Positions 35,975-40,682 of a stretch of 41,851 nt of DNA are shown in pieces. This DNA is from an uncultured Bacillota bacterium (GTDB taxonomy: Bacteria; Bacillota_I; Bacilli_A; Erysipelotrichales; Coprobacillaceae): contig CASETM010000068.1 of NCBI GenBank assembly GCA_949290865.1, positions 1-41,851 on the forward strand, in the 5' to 3' direction. The notes under the pieces were generated by a model. It saw only the letters and a program-made list of their open reading frames with translations, had not been told where the DNA came from and ran no database searches. The translations under genes and the position numbers were made by a program. How positions within the stretch are numbered: the first letter of the stretch is position 1; the number at the start of each line of letters is the position of its first letter.

Positions 35975-36694
35975 ATGGCAATATCAATAAAATTAAATAA
36001 AAGTGGTATCAAAAAGATCCAAAACGAATTGGAACATAGTTTAAAACGTCAAATTATTGAGAGGGGGAGTACAGAATTGCGTAAAGATAGCGAAGTATTT
36101 TTGAAAATAGTATTAGATAAGCGCAATGAAACAGGTAAGGATACAATTGTAGGTTCTGTTGATATGTTTAATAGCATTCCAAACATTAGAATGAACATTT
36201 ATAATATCATGGATGATTTGAAATTACATAATTGTATTAGTACACAAAGCAATATTTGCGTGAGTGGAGAAGTGGAAGTTATTTTAACAATGGATGGAAT
36301 AGATTATTTTAAGGAGAAAGGTAGTATGCTAGAAAGGGAGGTGCAGAAAAATATGAATAATACAAACAATTTTTATGGAAATGTAACCGGGATTCAAATT
36401 CAACAAGGCACTGTAAATTCGAATCAAAAGCAAAATGTTTCAGAAGAATTTGATTATGAGAAAATCTTTCAAATTATAAGAAAAATAAAAAAGTATGATC
36501 CAATGTTTGATGAAGAATATGGACAATTGGCTAGTGAAATGAGGGACAAACTTTCCGAAATCGAAAGATTACTGAAAGAAAAAGAGAACCCATCAAAAAT
36601 CAAAGTATTGTTAGGAGATATTAAGAATTTGTCTTTAGGTGTAGCAGGCAGCGTTATTGCTTCGGGTATTGCCAGTTTATTGCCAATGGTATAG
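35975..36694 (+). CDS. winged-helix protein with NNFYG motif and hydrophobic C-terminus
   Basis: The 239-residue protein has three parts. Residues about 12-118 are alpha/beta and end in a winged-helix-like pattern (DLKLHNCIS, then VEVILTMDGIDYFKEKG). Residues 128-150 form a polar, Asn/Gly-rich linker, NNTNNFYGNVTGIQIQQG. The C-terminal part (158-239) has charged helices (EIERLLKEKENPSKIKVLL) and a glycine-rich hydrophobic end, GVAGSVIASGIASLL, that could insert in a membrane or pack as a helix. This helical C-terminal part is like the one found at the end of many AbiTii-type proteins. The next gene, 12 nt away, encodes an AbiTii-type protein with the same NNFYG motif. I cannot name a function. 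Confidence 0.6.
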   Translation: MAISIKLNKSGIKKIQNELEHSLKRQIIERGSTELRKDSEVFLKIVLDKRNETGKDTIVGSVDMFNSIPNIRMNIYNIMDDLKLHNCISTQSNICVSGEVEVILTMDGIDYFKEKGSMLEREVQKNMNNTNNFYGNVTGIQIQQGTVNSNQKQNVSEEFDYEKIFQIIRKIKKYDPMFDEEYGQLASEMRDKLSEIERLLKEKENPSKIKVLLGDIKNLSLGVAGSVIASGIASLLPMV

Positions 36695-36706
36695 GTGGGA
36701 TTAGAT

Positions 36707-37318
36707 ATGGGAATAATAATTGAACTTCAAAGAGAGGCACTGGATGAAAGTATTTCTATTGAATCTTTAATGAGAAAAGCATATTTAGTAGCCAAAAAGC
36801 TCAACTTAAAAGAATTTGAAGAGTGGTTAAGACAAGAGCAAAATGGATATGACGAAAAAGTTCCTAAATATCGTTATATGGTTGGAGAAGTACGAGCATG
36901 GAATCCTTATCATGGCTGGATACCTGTGGTAGTGTCAGCAGAAATAGCAGATTTTATTTCTAAAATGCCAATACCAACACCTATTTCTGCTATACAAGAT
37001 TTATATACTTCATGTAAAGGTGCAACTATAAGTTCATCCGTTAATGGAAAAATAGCAGATTGGTTAAATGAAAATTCTGATAATTTGCCGACAAAGTTTG
37101 AGTTTTTTTCTTCTAAAAGTGAATTATATAGGATACTGAGCACAGTAAGAAATAAAATATTAGATTGGGCATTACTGTTGGAAGAAAATGGAATAGTAGG
37201 GGACGGCATGACTTTTACTGAAGTTGAAAAACAAACTGCACAAAGTACACAGGTAATTAATAATTATACAAATAATTTCTATGGAACAATAACAGATATA
37301 GATGTGGAGCAGGGATAG
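36707..37318 (+). CDS. AbiTii-domain protein
   Basis: The 203-residue protein begins IIELQREALDESISIESLMRKA and has the EFEEWLRQEQNGY, the YRYMVGEVRAWNPYHGWIPV strand and the RNKILDWALLLEENGI segment that mark the AbiTii family, named after part of the lactococcal AbiT abortive-infection system. The ATG at 36707 fits the family start and has AGGTGG 8 nt upstream; a GTG four codons earlier overlaps that site. It ends within the shared motif NNYTNNFYGTITDIDVEQG, whereas relatives often continue with a helical tail like that of the upstream gene product. So the two adjacent proteins together carry the parts of one longer protein. Confidence 0.75.
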   Translation: MGIIIELQREALDESISIESLMRKAYLVAKKLNLKEFEEWLRQEQNGYDEKVPKYRYMVGEVRAWNPYHGWIPVVVSAEIADFISKMPIPTPISAIQDLYTSCKGATISSSVNGKIADWLNENSDNLPTKFEFFSSKSELYRILSTVRNKILDWALLLEENGIVGDGMTFTEVEKQTAQSTQVINNYTNNFYGTITDIDVEQG

Positions 37319-37411: not shown

Positions 37412-38797
37412 ATGTCTCAACAGTTAAGCGGAACTACGGAAATATGTGGATATGATTTTCCATTTTGTTATGATGCGGATACTGAGAATATTAATATATA
37501 TATAAGGAATAGAATCATTACGGTTCCAGAAGATATGGATATAATTTTTGGAAAAAAATTAGGGATGATGACAGGGGGAAATATTTTATTTAAATTAAGT
37601 GTCCCTCTTACAAACAGTATTATGGAGATTGAAAATGGAATTCCTAAATATGTATCGTGTTTTAATCAGATAAGATCCGTTGATTTCTTTATTGAAAACT
37701 TTCAAGAGCACAGTGAATATACAGAAATGCGACTACAATTTCCGGAGTTGGACTATTTTATACCATCCATAGGCAGAGCAACAGTTACAAAGCAAGAAGT
37801 CGTTTTTTCAAGGCTCAAAGAGTCTTTGTATAGTTTTGATGTAAAATATGCTGATACAGAAGTCTATGTTTCTTTTGATACCAAAATGGAAGGAACTACA
37901 AATGTTAGAAATACTGCTAAGACTATATCAGAGATTTCTTTGAAATTTCCTAAAACAGCAAATTTAGATTATCTGAAAGGGTTGTATGAAGGAGTAAGGT
38001 CGTTTTTTGTCTTCGTTTGCAACAGACAGAATATCGGATTAAGGAGTGCGATACTTATTGGAGAATATCCGAGAAAACGAAACAAAAATGGAAAAATAGT
38101 TGAAGTGGTTGGCTATACACAACAAGAAATTATTTTTTCACAGAAATATCTTGAGCCATTGGAAGATGAAAAGAAAATTAAAAAAGTGCTAAATAGCAGA
38201 CTGTTTTCAACTAATCTTAAAGAATTATTTCAGATGTTTTTGGAGCAATCAGCTGAGGGGACTGCTATTGTTAACGGAAGTAGTATACATCCTTCTTTTA
38301 AATATAGAAATCTTATTGATTTAGAACAAAGCTTACATATAACAGCAGCTTTTGAATATTATGTAAGAACTTTACTACCTGAAATATCGTCAAATGAAAC
38401 GATTGAATTTTTAAATGATATGCAAGTCCTTGTTGAGGAATATATCAAAACTGTTACGGGGAAAAAGAAGAAAAAAGCAAAAGATTTCAAAAAATCATTA
38501 AGACCACAAATATCGCTTGAAGAAAAAATTATGAAAGTATATGAAGGATATTTAAATTGGCCGCCTCTAAAATCGGTTCTTTCAGAATGGTTCGGAGAGG
38601 ATATTTCTGATTTGGCAAAAGCAGCTAATTTATGGCGTAATGAATTGGCACATGAAAAGAGAGAGTATCAACCAGATATAAAAACAATTGATGCAGTTCG
38701 CTTTGTAGAACATGTTAATTATTGCATTATATTACGCTATGCTGGGTATGCTGATGAACAAATAAAGGAGATAGTATCGGATGTCCTTATAAGATAA
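37412..38797 (+). CDS. ApeA-like HEPN domain protein, probable anti-phage factor
   Basis: The 461-residue protein has a beta-rich N-terminal part (about 1-245) and a helical C-terminal part with a HEPN ribonuclease-type motif R-x4-H (R409 to H414 in LWRNELAHEKRE). This arrangement fits the ApeA (anti-phage HEPN) group, in which the HEPN domain is thought to cut RNA on infection. Lysine-rich sequence (TGKKKKKAKDFKK, about 350) may contact nucleic acid. The ATG has AAAGGGG upstream. A 93-nt gap separates it from the AbiTii-type gene, so it may belong to the same cassette without being tightly coupled. No signal peptide or membrane span is visible. Confidence 0.68.
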   Translation: MSQQLSGTTEICGYDFPFCYDADTENINIYIRNRIITVPEDMDIIFGKKLGMMTGGNILFKLSVPLTNSIMEIENGIPKYVSCFNQIRSVDFFIENFQEHSEYTEMRLQFPELDYFIPSIGRATVTKQEVVFSRLKESLYSFDVKYADTEVYVSFDTKMEGTTNVRNTAKTISEISLKFPKTANLDYLKGLYEGVRSFFVFVCNRQNIGLRSAILIGEYPRKRNKNGKIVEVVGYTQQEIIFSQKYLEPLEDEKKIKKVLNSRLFSTNLKELFQMFLEQSAEGTAIVNGSSIHPSFKYRNLIDLEQSLHITAAFEYYVRTLLPEISSNETIEFLNDMQVLVEEYIKTVTGKKKKKAKDFKKSLRPQISLEEKIMKVYEGYLNWPPLKSVLSEWFGEDISDLAKAANLWRNELAHEKREYQPDIKTIDAVRFVEHVNYCIILRYAGYADEQIKEIVSDVLIR

Positions 38798-38965: not shown

Positions 38966-39793
38966 ATGGCGAATTGCAAAGTAATTGCGATTGCCAACCA
39001 GAAAGGCGGAACGGGGAAAACCACTACAACCGTCAACTTAGGAATCGGGCTTGCCAGAGAAGGGAAGAAGGTTCTTCTGGTGGACGCTGATCCACAGGGC
39101 GATCTGACAACCTCACTAGGATGGCCAGAGCAGGATAACCTTTCTGTGACACTTGCCACACAGTTAGAGGGGATTGTGGCTGACCGGGAAATGGATAGCC
39201 ACGCCGGAATTTTACACCATGAGGAAGGCGTTGATCTGATCCCGTCCAATATTGAACTGGCAGGATTGGAAGTTATGCTTGTCAATGCCATGAGCCGGGA
39301 ACTTACTTTGAAAAATTATTTGAATGAAGTGAAAAGCGGGTATGACTATGTGTTGATTGACTGTATGCCAAGTTTAGGTATGCTTACGATCAATGCACTT
39401 GCGGCGTCTGATAGTGTGATTGTTCCGGTGCAGGCCCAGTATCTTCCGGCAAAGGGAATGACACAGCTAATGAAAACAATCGGGAAGGTGCAAAGGCAGA
39501 TTAATCCGGCGCTGAAGGTGGACGGTGTACTTTTGACACTTGCAGATATGCGGACAAATCTGGCCCGTGTGACCGCAGAAAGTATCCGTCAGAATTATGG
39601 GAGAATGGTTAAGGTTTACCAGACTGTCATTCCAGTTGGCGTGAAAGCAGCGGAAACAAGTGCCGCAGGACAGAGCATTTACCGCTATGACAAAAACGGT
39701 ACGGTGGCAAAAGCCTATGCGTCATTTACAAAGGAGGTGATACGGGATGGCGAAAGGCAGAGAAATAAAATTGCCCCTTCCCGCAGCCGCTGA
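38966..39793 (+). CDS. parA: ParA/Soj-family ATPase of the ICE
   Basis: The 275-residue ATPase has the deviant Walker A KGGTGKTTTTVNLG at residues 13-26, the VDADPQGDLTTSLG motif and YDYVLIDCMPSLGML (Walker B), with SVIVPVQAQYLPAKGM later. This is a ParA/Soj/MinD-type partition protein like those encoded near one end of Tn1549-type integrative elements and on plasmids. Its codon choice and GC content differ strongly from the chromosomal genes to the left. AGGAGG precedes the ATG. The parB gene overlaps its end by 47 nt. Confidence 0.9.
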   Translation: MANCKVIAIANQKGGTGKTTTTVNLGIGLAREGKKVLLVDADPQGDLTTSLGWPEQDNLSVTLATQLEGIVADREMDSHAGILHHEEGVDLIPSNIELAGLEVMLVNAMSRELTLKNYLNEVKSGYDYVLIDCMPSLGMLTINALAASDSVIVPVQAQYLPAKGMTQLMKTIGKVQRQINPALKVDGVLLTLADMRTNLARVTAESIRQNYGRMVKVYQTVIPVGVKAAETSAAGQSIYRYDKNGTVAKAYASFTKEVIRDGERQRNKIAPSRSR

Positions 39794-40682
39794 TCTGTTT
39801 AGCACACAGGAGGAACGTGACGAGGCAAAGCGGGAGTTTATAGCAGACATTCCTCTGGAAGAGATCAGCGACTTTCCCGATCATCCGTACAAAGTAAAGC
39901 AAGATGAAAGTATGTTGGAACTGGCAGCAAGTATCCGGGAGAAAGGTGTGGTCAATCCTGCTCTGGTGCGCCCGAAACCGGAAGGCGGTTATGAAATGGT
40001 GGCAGGACACCGTAGAAAATTCGCTAGTGAGCTTGCCGGGAAAACGGTCATGCCCTGTATTGTGCGAAATCTGACAGATGATGAAGCCACAATTATCATG
40101 GTGGACTCTAACCTGCAAAGGGAGAAAGTCTTACCGTCAGAAAAAGCCTTTGCTTATAAAATGAAGTTGGAGGCCATGAACAGACAAGCAGGACGCCCTA
40201 GTAAAAATATGACACCAGTGGTGTCAAATTCTTTAGGTATAAGAACAAATGAGGTTCTGGCAAAAGAAGTGGGCGAAAGCAGAGAGACAATCCGTCGCTA
40301 TATCCGCCTTACTGAACTCATCACACCTATTCTGGATATGGTGGATGAGGGGAAGATTGCCATGCGTCCGGCGGTAGAACTGTCTTACCTGCCGAAAGAA
40401 CAACAGCAGGTGCTTTTTGACACAATGGAACAGGAGGATTGTACTCCAAGTCACGCACAGGCCATTAAAATGCGGAAGTTTGCAGAGGCGGGAAAGTTGA
40501 ATGAGGATGTGATCCTGTCGATTATGATAGAGGAAAAGCCGAACCAAGTGGAGCAGTTTAAAATCCCGAAAAAGAGGATTGACAAATATTTCTCTCCGGG
40601 AACCACGCCAAAGCAGATGGAGGACACAATCATTAAGGCACTGGAACTGTATCGCAGACGGGAGAGAGGACGGGAGAGATAA
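39747..40682 (+). CDS. parB: ParB/Spo0J-family partition protein of the ICE
   Basis: The 311-residue protein has a ParB N-terminal domain (about 35-130) with LEEISDFPDHPYKV, LAASIREKGVVNPALVRP and the GHRR box (MVAGHRRKFAS), then a helix-turn-helix region (about 160-215, GIRTNEVLAKEVGESRETIRRYIRL). It binds a centromere-like site and works with ParA; the GHRR box belongs to the CTP-binding part of the family. AGGAGGTGAT precedes the ATG, which lies inside the parA gene, so translation is probably coupled. The basic tail (RRRERGRER) may add DNA affinity. Confidence 0.88.
   Translation: MAKGREIKLPLPAAADLFSTQEERDEAKREFIADIPLEEISDFPDHPYKVKQDESMLELAASIREKGVVNPALVRPKPEGGYEMVAGHRRKFASELAGKTVMPCIVRNLTDDEATIIMVDSNLQREKVLPSEKAFAYKMKLEAMNRQAGRPSKNMTPVVSNSLGIRTNEVLAKEVGESRETIRRYIRLTELITPILDMVDEGKIAMRPAVELSYLPKEQQQVLFDTMEQEDCTPSHAQAIKMRKFAEAGKLNEDVILSIMIEEKPNQVEQFKIPKKRIDKYFSPGTTPKQMEDTIIKALELYRRRERGRER

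What the first reader, a model, noticed from the sequence alone, without database searches (positions are those of the whole stretch)
36365..37318. Two adjacent genes share an NNFYG-type motif that resembles RHIM/amyloid-signalling motifs
The winged-helix protein (residues about 128-150) and the AbiTii-type protein (residues about 185-203) both carry a short Asn-rich motif ending in a Gly: NNFYGNVTGIQIQQG and NNFYGTITDIDVEQG. The G-I-Q-I core with flanking Asn/Gly recalls the RHIM core and the bacterial amyloid-signalling motifs that pair a receptor with an effector encoded next door. In the AbiTii protein the motif is C-terminal; in the other it joins a winged-helix head to a helical tail with a hydrophobic end. 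The two may be sensor and effector of one defence system, joined by homotypic contact.
Basis: partly seen in the sequence, partly recalled or inferred. Interest (0 to 1): 0.78.

Follow-up and report, generated by a model that had tools for sequence, protein, structure and literature searches.

The report
AbiT defence pair sharing a motif
Two neighbouring genes turn out to be the known but unexplained phage-defence system AbiT, and both proteins carry the same short, strongly conserved, probably unfolded motif that looks like the coupling piece by which one part calls the other into action.

Summary
The two proteins at 35975-36691 and 36707-37315 share the motif at the stated places (at most 2 of 20,000 shuffled pairs match as well). 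The pair is therefore the two-gene Lactococcus abortive-infection system AbiT, whose mechanism a 2023 review calls unknown; here AbiTi also has a winged-helix head. In relatives, AbiTii without a C-terminal tail has AbiTi next door in 16 of 17 loci. AbiTii with its own tail never does (0 of 20): there AbiTii domain, motif and AbiTi-like tail form one protein, with the motif at the joint. The motif core QxQQ....SxQ is the most conserved stretch of AbiTi's core, yet AlphaFold leaves the motif unfolded in both proteins. This fits a coupling or assembly motif linking AbiTii (probable sensor or scaffold) to AbiTi (probable effector; one AbiTi is toxic in E. coli). It is not a RHIM: the (V/I)Q(V/I/L)G tetrad occurs in none of 38 motifs, there is no NLR, and no motif-motif contact was predicted. 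Amyloid or other homotypic beta contact remains possible but untested.

The parts
35975..36691 (+). AbiTi homologue P0001 (239 aa): winged-helix head, motif, four-helix tail
   Evidence: PADLOC AbiTi PDLC02333 2.2e-49 over residues 128-238; profile of relatives built without the window 1.9e-53
36071..36310 (+). winged-helix head of AbiTi (residues 33-112), not part of the AbiTi core; variable in relatives
   Evidence: AF2 model; fold match to CRP/MarR-type winged helices; the N-terminal part differs or is absent in relatives
36356..36427 (+). shared motif in AbiTi, NNTNNFYGNVTGIQIQQGTVNSNQ (residues 128-151)
   Evidence: pLDDT under 50 at residues 116-157; most conserved stretch of the AbiTi core
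36455..36691 (+). four-helix tail of AbiTi (residues 161-239) with a hydrophobic C-terminal segment
   Evidence: AF2 helices 161-172, 175-202, 206-221, 227-239; hydropathy 1.85 over residues 221-239; fold matches are only generic four-helix bundles
36336..36355 (+). possible internal ribosome-binding site (GGGAGGTG) and ATG (Met127) that would give a short AbiTi of motif plus tail only
   Evidence: sequence; L018 lacks the head through a deletion and starts at the same ATG; not conserved in L019 or L020
36707..37315 (+). AbiTii homologue P0002 (203 aa), tail-less form
   Evidence: Pfam AbiTii PF18864 6.6e-44; PADLOC AbiTii 2.5e-49
37259..37315 (+). shared motif at the C-terminus of AbiTii, NNYTNNFYGTITDIDVEQG (residues 185-203)
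   Evidence: pLDDT under 50 at fusion residues 426-447 = P0002 182-203

Best explanation
This is a two-gene AbiT abortive-infection system carried at the left end of a mobile element. AbiTii (alpha+beta domain, probable sensor or scaffold) and AbiTi (four-helix bundle with a hydrophobic end, probable effector) are coupled through a shared, intrinsically unfolded Asn/Gln-rich motif. In the one-gene relatives the motif joins the AbiTii domain to the same tail in cis. In the two-gene form the tail has moved to a separate protein and each part kept a copy of the motif, so the two probably assemble in trans through it. On infection AbiTii would bring AbiTi molecules together through the motif, and the clustered helical tails would stop or kill the cell. 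The variable N-terminal part of AbiTi (here a winged helix) would add regulation or a second input. Shown: identity of the genes, conserved neighbourhood, complementary presence of the tail, natural fusion, motif conservation, predicted disorder. Inferred: direct motif contact, the order of events, and the way the tail acts.
For: Family hits. The two genes are adjacent, from overlapping to 24 bases apart. Tail-less AbiTii has AbiTi next door in 16 of 17 loci and tailed AbiTii in 0 of 20. One-gene proteins match both families end to end: L035 has AbiTii at 3-183 (4e-49) and AbiTi at 188-297 (2e-17), and a Brevibacillus plasmid protein likewise. Motif core identity is 0.75 against 0.35 for the AbiTi tail, and no 11-aa tail window reaches it. 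AbiTii's motif first half is 0.67 against 0.47 for its domain and 0.32 for the preceding linker. The motif is the main long unfolded stretch (pLDDT under 50) in both models. Coprococcus catus AbiTi inhibits growth in E. coli and its AbiTii does not neutralise it (PMC3985639), which fits an effector better than a toxin-antitoxin pair. [quoted passage not shown]
Against: The single-chain AF2 model shows no contact between the two motifs, though one copy of each, a shallow alignment and a monomer method make this a weak test. The window's AbiTii motif is shortened and degenerate in its second half. Over the whole motif, copies from the same locus are not clearly more alike than copies from different loci once related loci are merged (29 of 120 permutations; 1 of 120 for columns 13-18 alone, chosen after the fact). 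The 37 loci are not independent: the tree needs only two changes between forms. Lactococcal AbiTi was not toxic in E. coli. No membrane or killing activity was tested here.
Confidence: 0.57

Rival explanations
1. Shared descent without present function in AbiTii: the two-gene form arose from a one-gene AbiTii-motif-tail protein, AbiTi kept motif and tail, AbiTii kept its domain and a remnant of the motif, and the two proteins now work together by other surfaces.
For: The motifs are homologous to the single motif of one-gene proteins. The window AbiTii copy ends right after the QG and has lost the QIQQ core. In the window clade the second half is poorly kept.
Against: The AbiTii motif persists in every intact two-gene AbiTii although the AbiTii proteins are only 33-72% identical to the window's outside its near-copy L017. 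Tyr, Asn and Gln of the motif are invariant in 14 of 14, and the first half is more conserved than the domain.
Confidence: 0.2
2. The motif is a genuine amyloid-signalling motif (functionally RHIM/PP/BASS-like but of a new sequence family): activated AbiTii templates a cross-beta assembly that AbiTi joins.
For: Adjacent genes share a short N/Q/G-rich motif, predicted disordered, between a probable sensor and a four-helix effector, the logic described for BASS/BELL and PP/HELL systems. Asn/Gln and Gly conservation is a named feature of such motifs.
Against: No RHIM tetrad in any of 38 motifs; no Pfam hit of P0001 to any amyloid-motif family at E of 1 or less; no NLR; the motif lies N-terminal to the helical bundle in AbiTi, not C-terminal as in BELL or HELL; no biophysical data.
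Confidence: 0.28
3. The motif is a short linear docking peptide, or folds only in a small defined oligomer (for example a beta-strand pairing or trimer), without open-ended assembly.
For: Different positions are invariant in the two proteins (Y..N...Q in AbiTii, Q.QQ....S.Q in AbiTi), as expected if they play different roles in one complex.
Against: One-gene proteins keep both halves in one copy; no such complex was predicted.
Confidence: 0.27
4. AbiTi and AbiTii are a classical toxin-antitoxin pair and the winged helix is an autoregulator.
For: Small adjacent genes; C. catus AbiTi is toxic; winged-helix head here.
Against: C. catus AbiTii gave no antitoxicity; the head is absent or unrelated in most AbiTi relatives; one-gene fusions without a separate antitoxin are common.
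Confidence: 0.07

Closest known systems
AbiT of Lactococcus lactis (abiTi/abiTii)
   Same: Both proteins match the AbiTi and AbiTii families at E around 1e-49; two adjacent genes in the same order
   Different: AbiTi here has an extra winged-helix head in front of the motif and tail; activity in this host is untested; the shared motif and the split/fused architecture are not described in the papers that could be read
One-gene AbiTii proteins (about 300 aa, e.g. Paenibacillus L035, Brevibacillus plasmid L007)
   Same: Same AbiTii domain, same motif position, homologous tail
   Different: All in one chain with one motif and no AbiTi neighbour
BASS/BELL-NLR amyloid signalosomes (bacteria)
   Same: Short motif shared by two adjacent genes, one with a small helical effector-like domain carrying a hydrophobic segment
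   Different: No NLR, reversed order of motif and helical domain in AbiTi, no sequence match shown to BASS families
RHIM (RIPK1/RIPK3) and fungal PP motifs
   Same: Asn/Gln/Gly-rich short motif, unfolded in the free protein
   Different: Core tetrad (V/I)Q(V/I/L)G absent from all copies
PDC-M14B (PADLOC phage-defence candidate)
   Same: C-terminal part of its profiles matches the motif-plus-tail module (down to 3e-12 in L069)
   Different: Different N-terminal part; not followed further

Membership tests
AbiT (two-gene abortive infection system) | AbiTii domain protein | tested here: met
   PF18864 6.6e-44, PDLC02334 2.5e-49
AbiT (two-gene abortive infection system) | AbiTi protein encoded directly upstream | tested here: met
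   PDLC02333 2.2e-49 over residues 128-238; genes adjacent, AbiTii start 12 bases after the AbiTi stop
AbiT (two-gene abortive infection system) | Phage resistance and abortive phenotype | not testable with these tools
   needs an experiment in a laboratory strain
RHIM | core tetrad (V/I)-Q-(V/I/L/C)-G (definition: PMC9444067) | tested here: not met
   0 of 38 motif sequences match [IVL]Q[IVLM]G; the window motifs read IQIQ and IDVE at the place
RHIM | profile match to a curated amyloid-motif family | tested here: inconclusive
   no Pfam hit for P0001 at E of 1 or less, but HMMER filters often lose such short motifs
RHIM | amyloid assembly | not testable with these tools
   needs peptide biophysics
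BASS/BELL-NLR amyloid signalosome | same short motif in two adjacent genes | tested here: met
BASS/BELL-NLR amyloid signalosome | one partner is an NLR (NB-ARC/NACHT) | tested here: not met
   partners are AbiTii, AbiTi and an ApeA-like HEPN protein; no NTPase domain found in them
BASS/BELL-NLR amyloid signalosome | BELL helical effector domain with the motif C-terminal to it | tested here: not met
   in AbiTi the motif is N-terminal to the four-helix tail; no BELL profile was at hand for homology
BASS/BELL-NLR amyloid signalosome | sequence match to BASS1-10 | not tested
   BASS profiles are not in the libraries offered
type II-like toxin-antitoxin pair | second protein neutralises the first | not tested
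   published for C. catus: no antitoxicity seen (PMC3985639)

The most novel reading that the evidence does not exclude
AbiT is an NLR-free amyloid-type signalling pair: AbiTii senses infection and its C-terminal QxQQ-type motif templates stacking of the same motif in AbiTi, whose helical tails then damage the cell. The motif would be a new amyloid-signalling family, and the same motif-plus-tail module would serve as a general adaptor in several bacterial defence proteins (one-gene AbiTii, PDC-M14B, HNH/GmrSD-linked loci).
Probability: 0.27. Interest if true: 0.82.

Novelty: new variant of a known kind. Interest (0 to 1): 0.58.

Why it matters
AbiT was described in 2002 and its mechanism is still listed as unknown. 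A conserved motif that replaces the covalent link of the one-gene form gives a concrete, testable coupling hypothesis with exact residues (QxQQ and S.Q in AbiTi; Y, N and Q in AbiTii). If the contact is homotypic, it would bring amyloid-like or other motif-driven assembly into classical abortive infection in ordinary non-filamentous Firmicutes without any NLR, a question raised as open in the amyloid-signalling literature (PMC7889193).

Tried and rejected
Scans of viral contigs with P0001 and with the AbiTi module alone found nothing; phage records had no relative of either protein. A search of 392 genomes of the window's own phylum with the AbiTi family gave only the window itself and two marginal hits (E 3e-5 and 8e-5) that show no motif. 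Same-locus against different-locus motif similarity was tested as a sign of co-evolution and is not convincing after merging related loci. Fold searches gave no informative relative: the tail matches only generic four-helix bundles (pannexin rows have rmsd 3-6 and 1-4% identity) and the AbiTii domain was barely tested. Alignments for a joint model that misplaced AbiTi rows on the AbiTii motif were discarded. The original AbiT papers (2002, 2012) are not in the library. A recent gene-conversion origin of the shared motif is unlikely, because the two DNA copies differ by many synonymous changes.

Full report
WHAT IS THERE. P0001 (35975-36691 +, 239 aa) and P0002 (36707-37315 +, 203 aa) are adjacent and on the same strand. 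P0002 is AbiTii (Pfam 6.6e-44, PADLOC 2.5e-49). P0001 has no Pfam hit, but its residues 128-238 match PADLOC AbiTi at 2.2e-49. The best local alignment of the two proteins covers this region (score 71) and is reached by 2 of 20,000 full shuffles and 1 of 20,000 window shuffles.

CONSERVATION AND NEIGHBOURHOOD. A scan of one genome per species with an AbiTii alignment gave 37 loci. They fall into two kinds. In 17 the AbiTii protein is short and tail-less (typically about 200-235 aa, ending just after the motif; two are truncated or frameshifted before it). In 16 of these 17 the gene next to it is an AbiTi with motif plus tail; the exception, L031, is an N-terminally truncated copy. In the other 20 the AbiTii protein is longer (266-340 aa) and continues after the motif into a helical tail, and none has an AbiTi gene nearby (Fisher p 1.3e-9). 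In 12 of these 20 the tail is itself recognised by an AbiTi profile built without the window, in the best cases at 1e-14 to 1e-15. Single natural proteins match AbiTii and AbiTi one after the other (L035: 3-183 and 188-297; Brevibacillus plasmid: 3-183 and 190-295). The loci are related: a tree of the AbiTii domain needs only two changes between the forms, so the p-value overstates the evidence, but the split is old and the motif has been kept on both sides. In an AbiTi-first search of other genomes, three of the five newly found AbiTi cores have AbiTii next door (L064-L066). The other two sit beside HNH-type or GmrSD-like genes (identified by eye; L067, L069).

THE MOTIF. In 14 two-gene loci the AbiTi copy keeps QxQQ and S.Q almost without change, and the AbiTii copy keeps Y, N and one Q without change. 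The motif core is the most conserved stretch of the AbiTi core: mean pairwise identity 0.75 against 0.35 for the tail, with no tail window as high. In AbiTii the first half of the motif (0.67) exceeds the domain (0.47) and the linker before it (0.32). The window's AbiTii copy is one of the more worn in its second half (DVEQ).

STRUCTURE. AlphaFold2 on the one-gene protein L035 (mean pLDDT 90) gives a confident AbiTii domain, an unfolded stretch at 193-213 that holds the motif, and four tail helices. A second model used the read-through of the single TAG between the two window genes, which lie in one frame, so that both proteins are in one chain. It gives a winged helix (33-112; 3dv8 Z 8.7, rmsd 2.3, 68 residues; Foldseek probability 0.97-0.98 to SarA and MepR), an unfolded stretch at 116-157, four helices at 161-239, the AbiTii domain, and an unfolded C-terminus at 426-447. 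No motif-motif pairing was predicted either; with one copy each and a shallow alignment this says little.

PARTS OF AbiTi. What precedes the motif is variable: the same type of head in the window, L017, L020 and L025; unrelated N-terminal parts in others; almost nothing in L018, L026 and L027. The constant unit is motif plus tail, about 115 aa. In the window a strong ribosome-binding site (GGGAGGTG, 36336-36343) stands 9 bases before an in-frame ATG at 36353, exactly where the short form would start. L018 has lost the head by deletion and begins at that ATG. The site is not kept in L019 or L020, so a short second product is only a possibility.

CONTEXT. Similarity to L017, L018 and L019 starts at the same base, 35781, which marks the left end of a mobile element. 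AbiT and an ApeA-like HEPN gene (37412-38797) are its first cargo, followed by ParA/ParB-type genes of much higher G+C. L017 is from another bacterial lineage and is 94% identical over 5.5 kb, so the element moves.

MECHANISM. Published facts: C. catus AbiTi inhibits growth in E. coli, its AbiTii does not neutralise it, and L. lactis AbiTi was not toxic there (PMC3985639). [quoted passage not shown] From the anatomy I infer that AbiTii is the sensing or scaffolding part and AbiTi the effector, and that the motif replaces in trans the covalent link of the one-gene form. Shown here: identity, linkage, complementarity, fusion, conservation, predicted disorder. Inferred: contact through the motif, the order of events, and that the helical tail acts on the membrane or otherwise stops the cell. 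I put coupling through the motif at roughly two in three, and open-ended homotypic beta or amyloid assembly at a little over one in four.

WORKS LIKE VERSUS IS. The layout (two adjacent genes, shared short unfolded N/Q/G-rich motif, four-helix effector) works like the BASS/BELL and PP/HELL systems. It is not a member of RHIM (tetrad not met) nor of the NLR-based BASS systems (no NLR; motif on the other side of the bundle). It is a member of AbiT by sequence. No paper in the held library links AbiT with amyloid or a shared motif; the original AbiT papers could not be read.

Noticed in passing
window 35781: Left end of a mobile element: similarity to L017, L018 and L019 all begins at this base, while the cargo behind it differs between them.
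   Followed up: partly
window 37412-38797: ApeA-like HEPN protein (Pfam HEPN_Apea 3e-7) right after AbiT; also present in L017 but not beside AbiT in the other loci. Probably a second defence gene of the same element.
   Followed up: partly
window 38966-40682: ParA/ParB-type genes with G+C near 0.48 directly after defence genes at 0.31-0.32, i.e. element backbone and cargo of different origin.
   Followed up: no
window 36336-36355: Strong ribosome-binding site and ATG inside the AbiTi gene, exactly in front of the motif; may give a short AbiTi without the winged helix. L018 uses the same start after losing the head.
   Followed up: partly
L047 3338-5487: Fibrobacter locus with three AbiTii-like genes in a row, the first tail-less and ending in a motif-like stretch, the second with a tail: a second kind of split pair.
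   Followed up: no
L006 1-1840: Two one-gene AbiTii proteins in tandem on a viral contig.
   Followed up: no
L067 1489-3333 and L069 1462-2944: The motif-plus-tail module occurs without AbiTii next to a gene that looks like a GmrSD/DUF1524-type enzyme (L067) and next to one that looks like an HNH endonuclease (L069); L069 also matches PDC-M14B (3e-12). The module may be a general C-terminal adaptor in defence proteins.
   Followed up: no
L008 2660-2983: Alteromonas plasmid: a 107-aa protein with a possible winged-helix head and a C-terminal transmembrane-like segment directly before a one-gene AbiTii protein.
   Followed up: no
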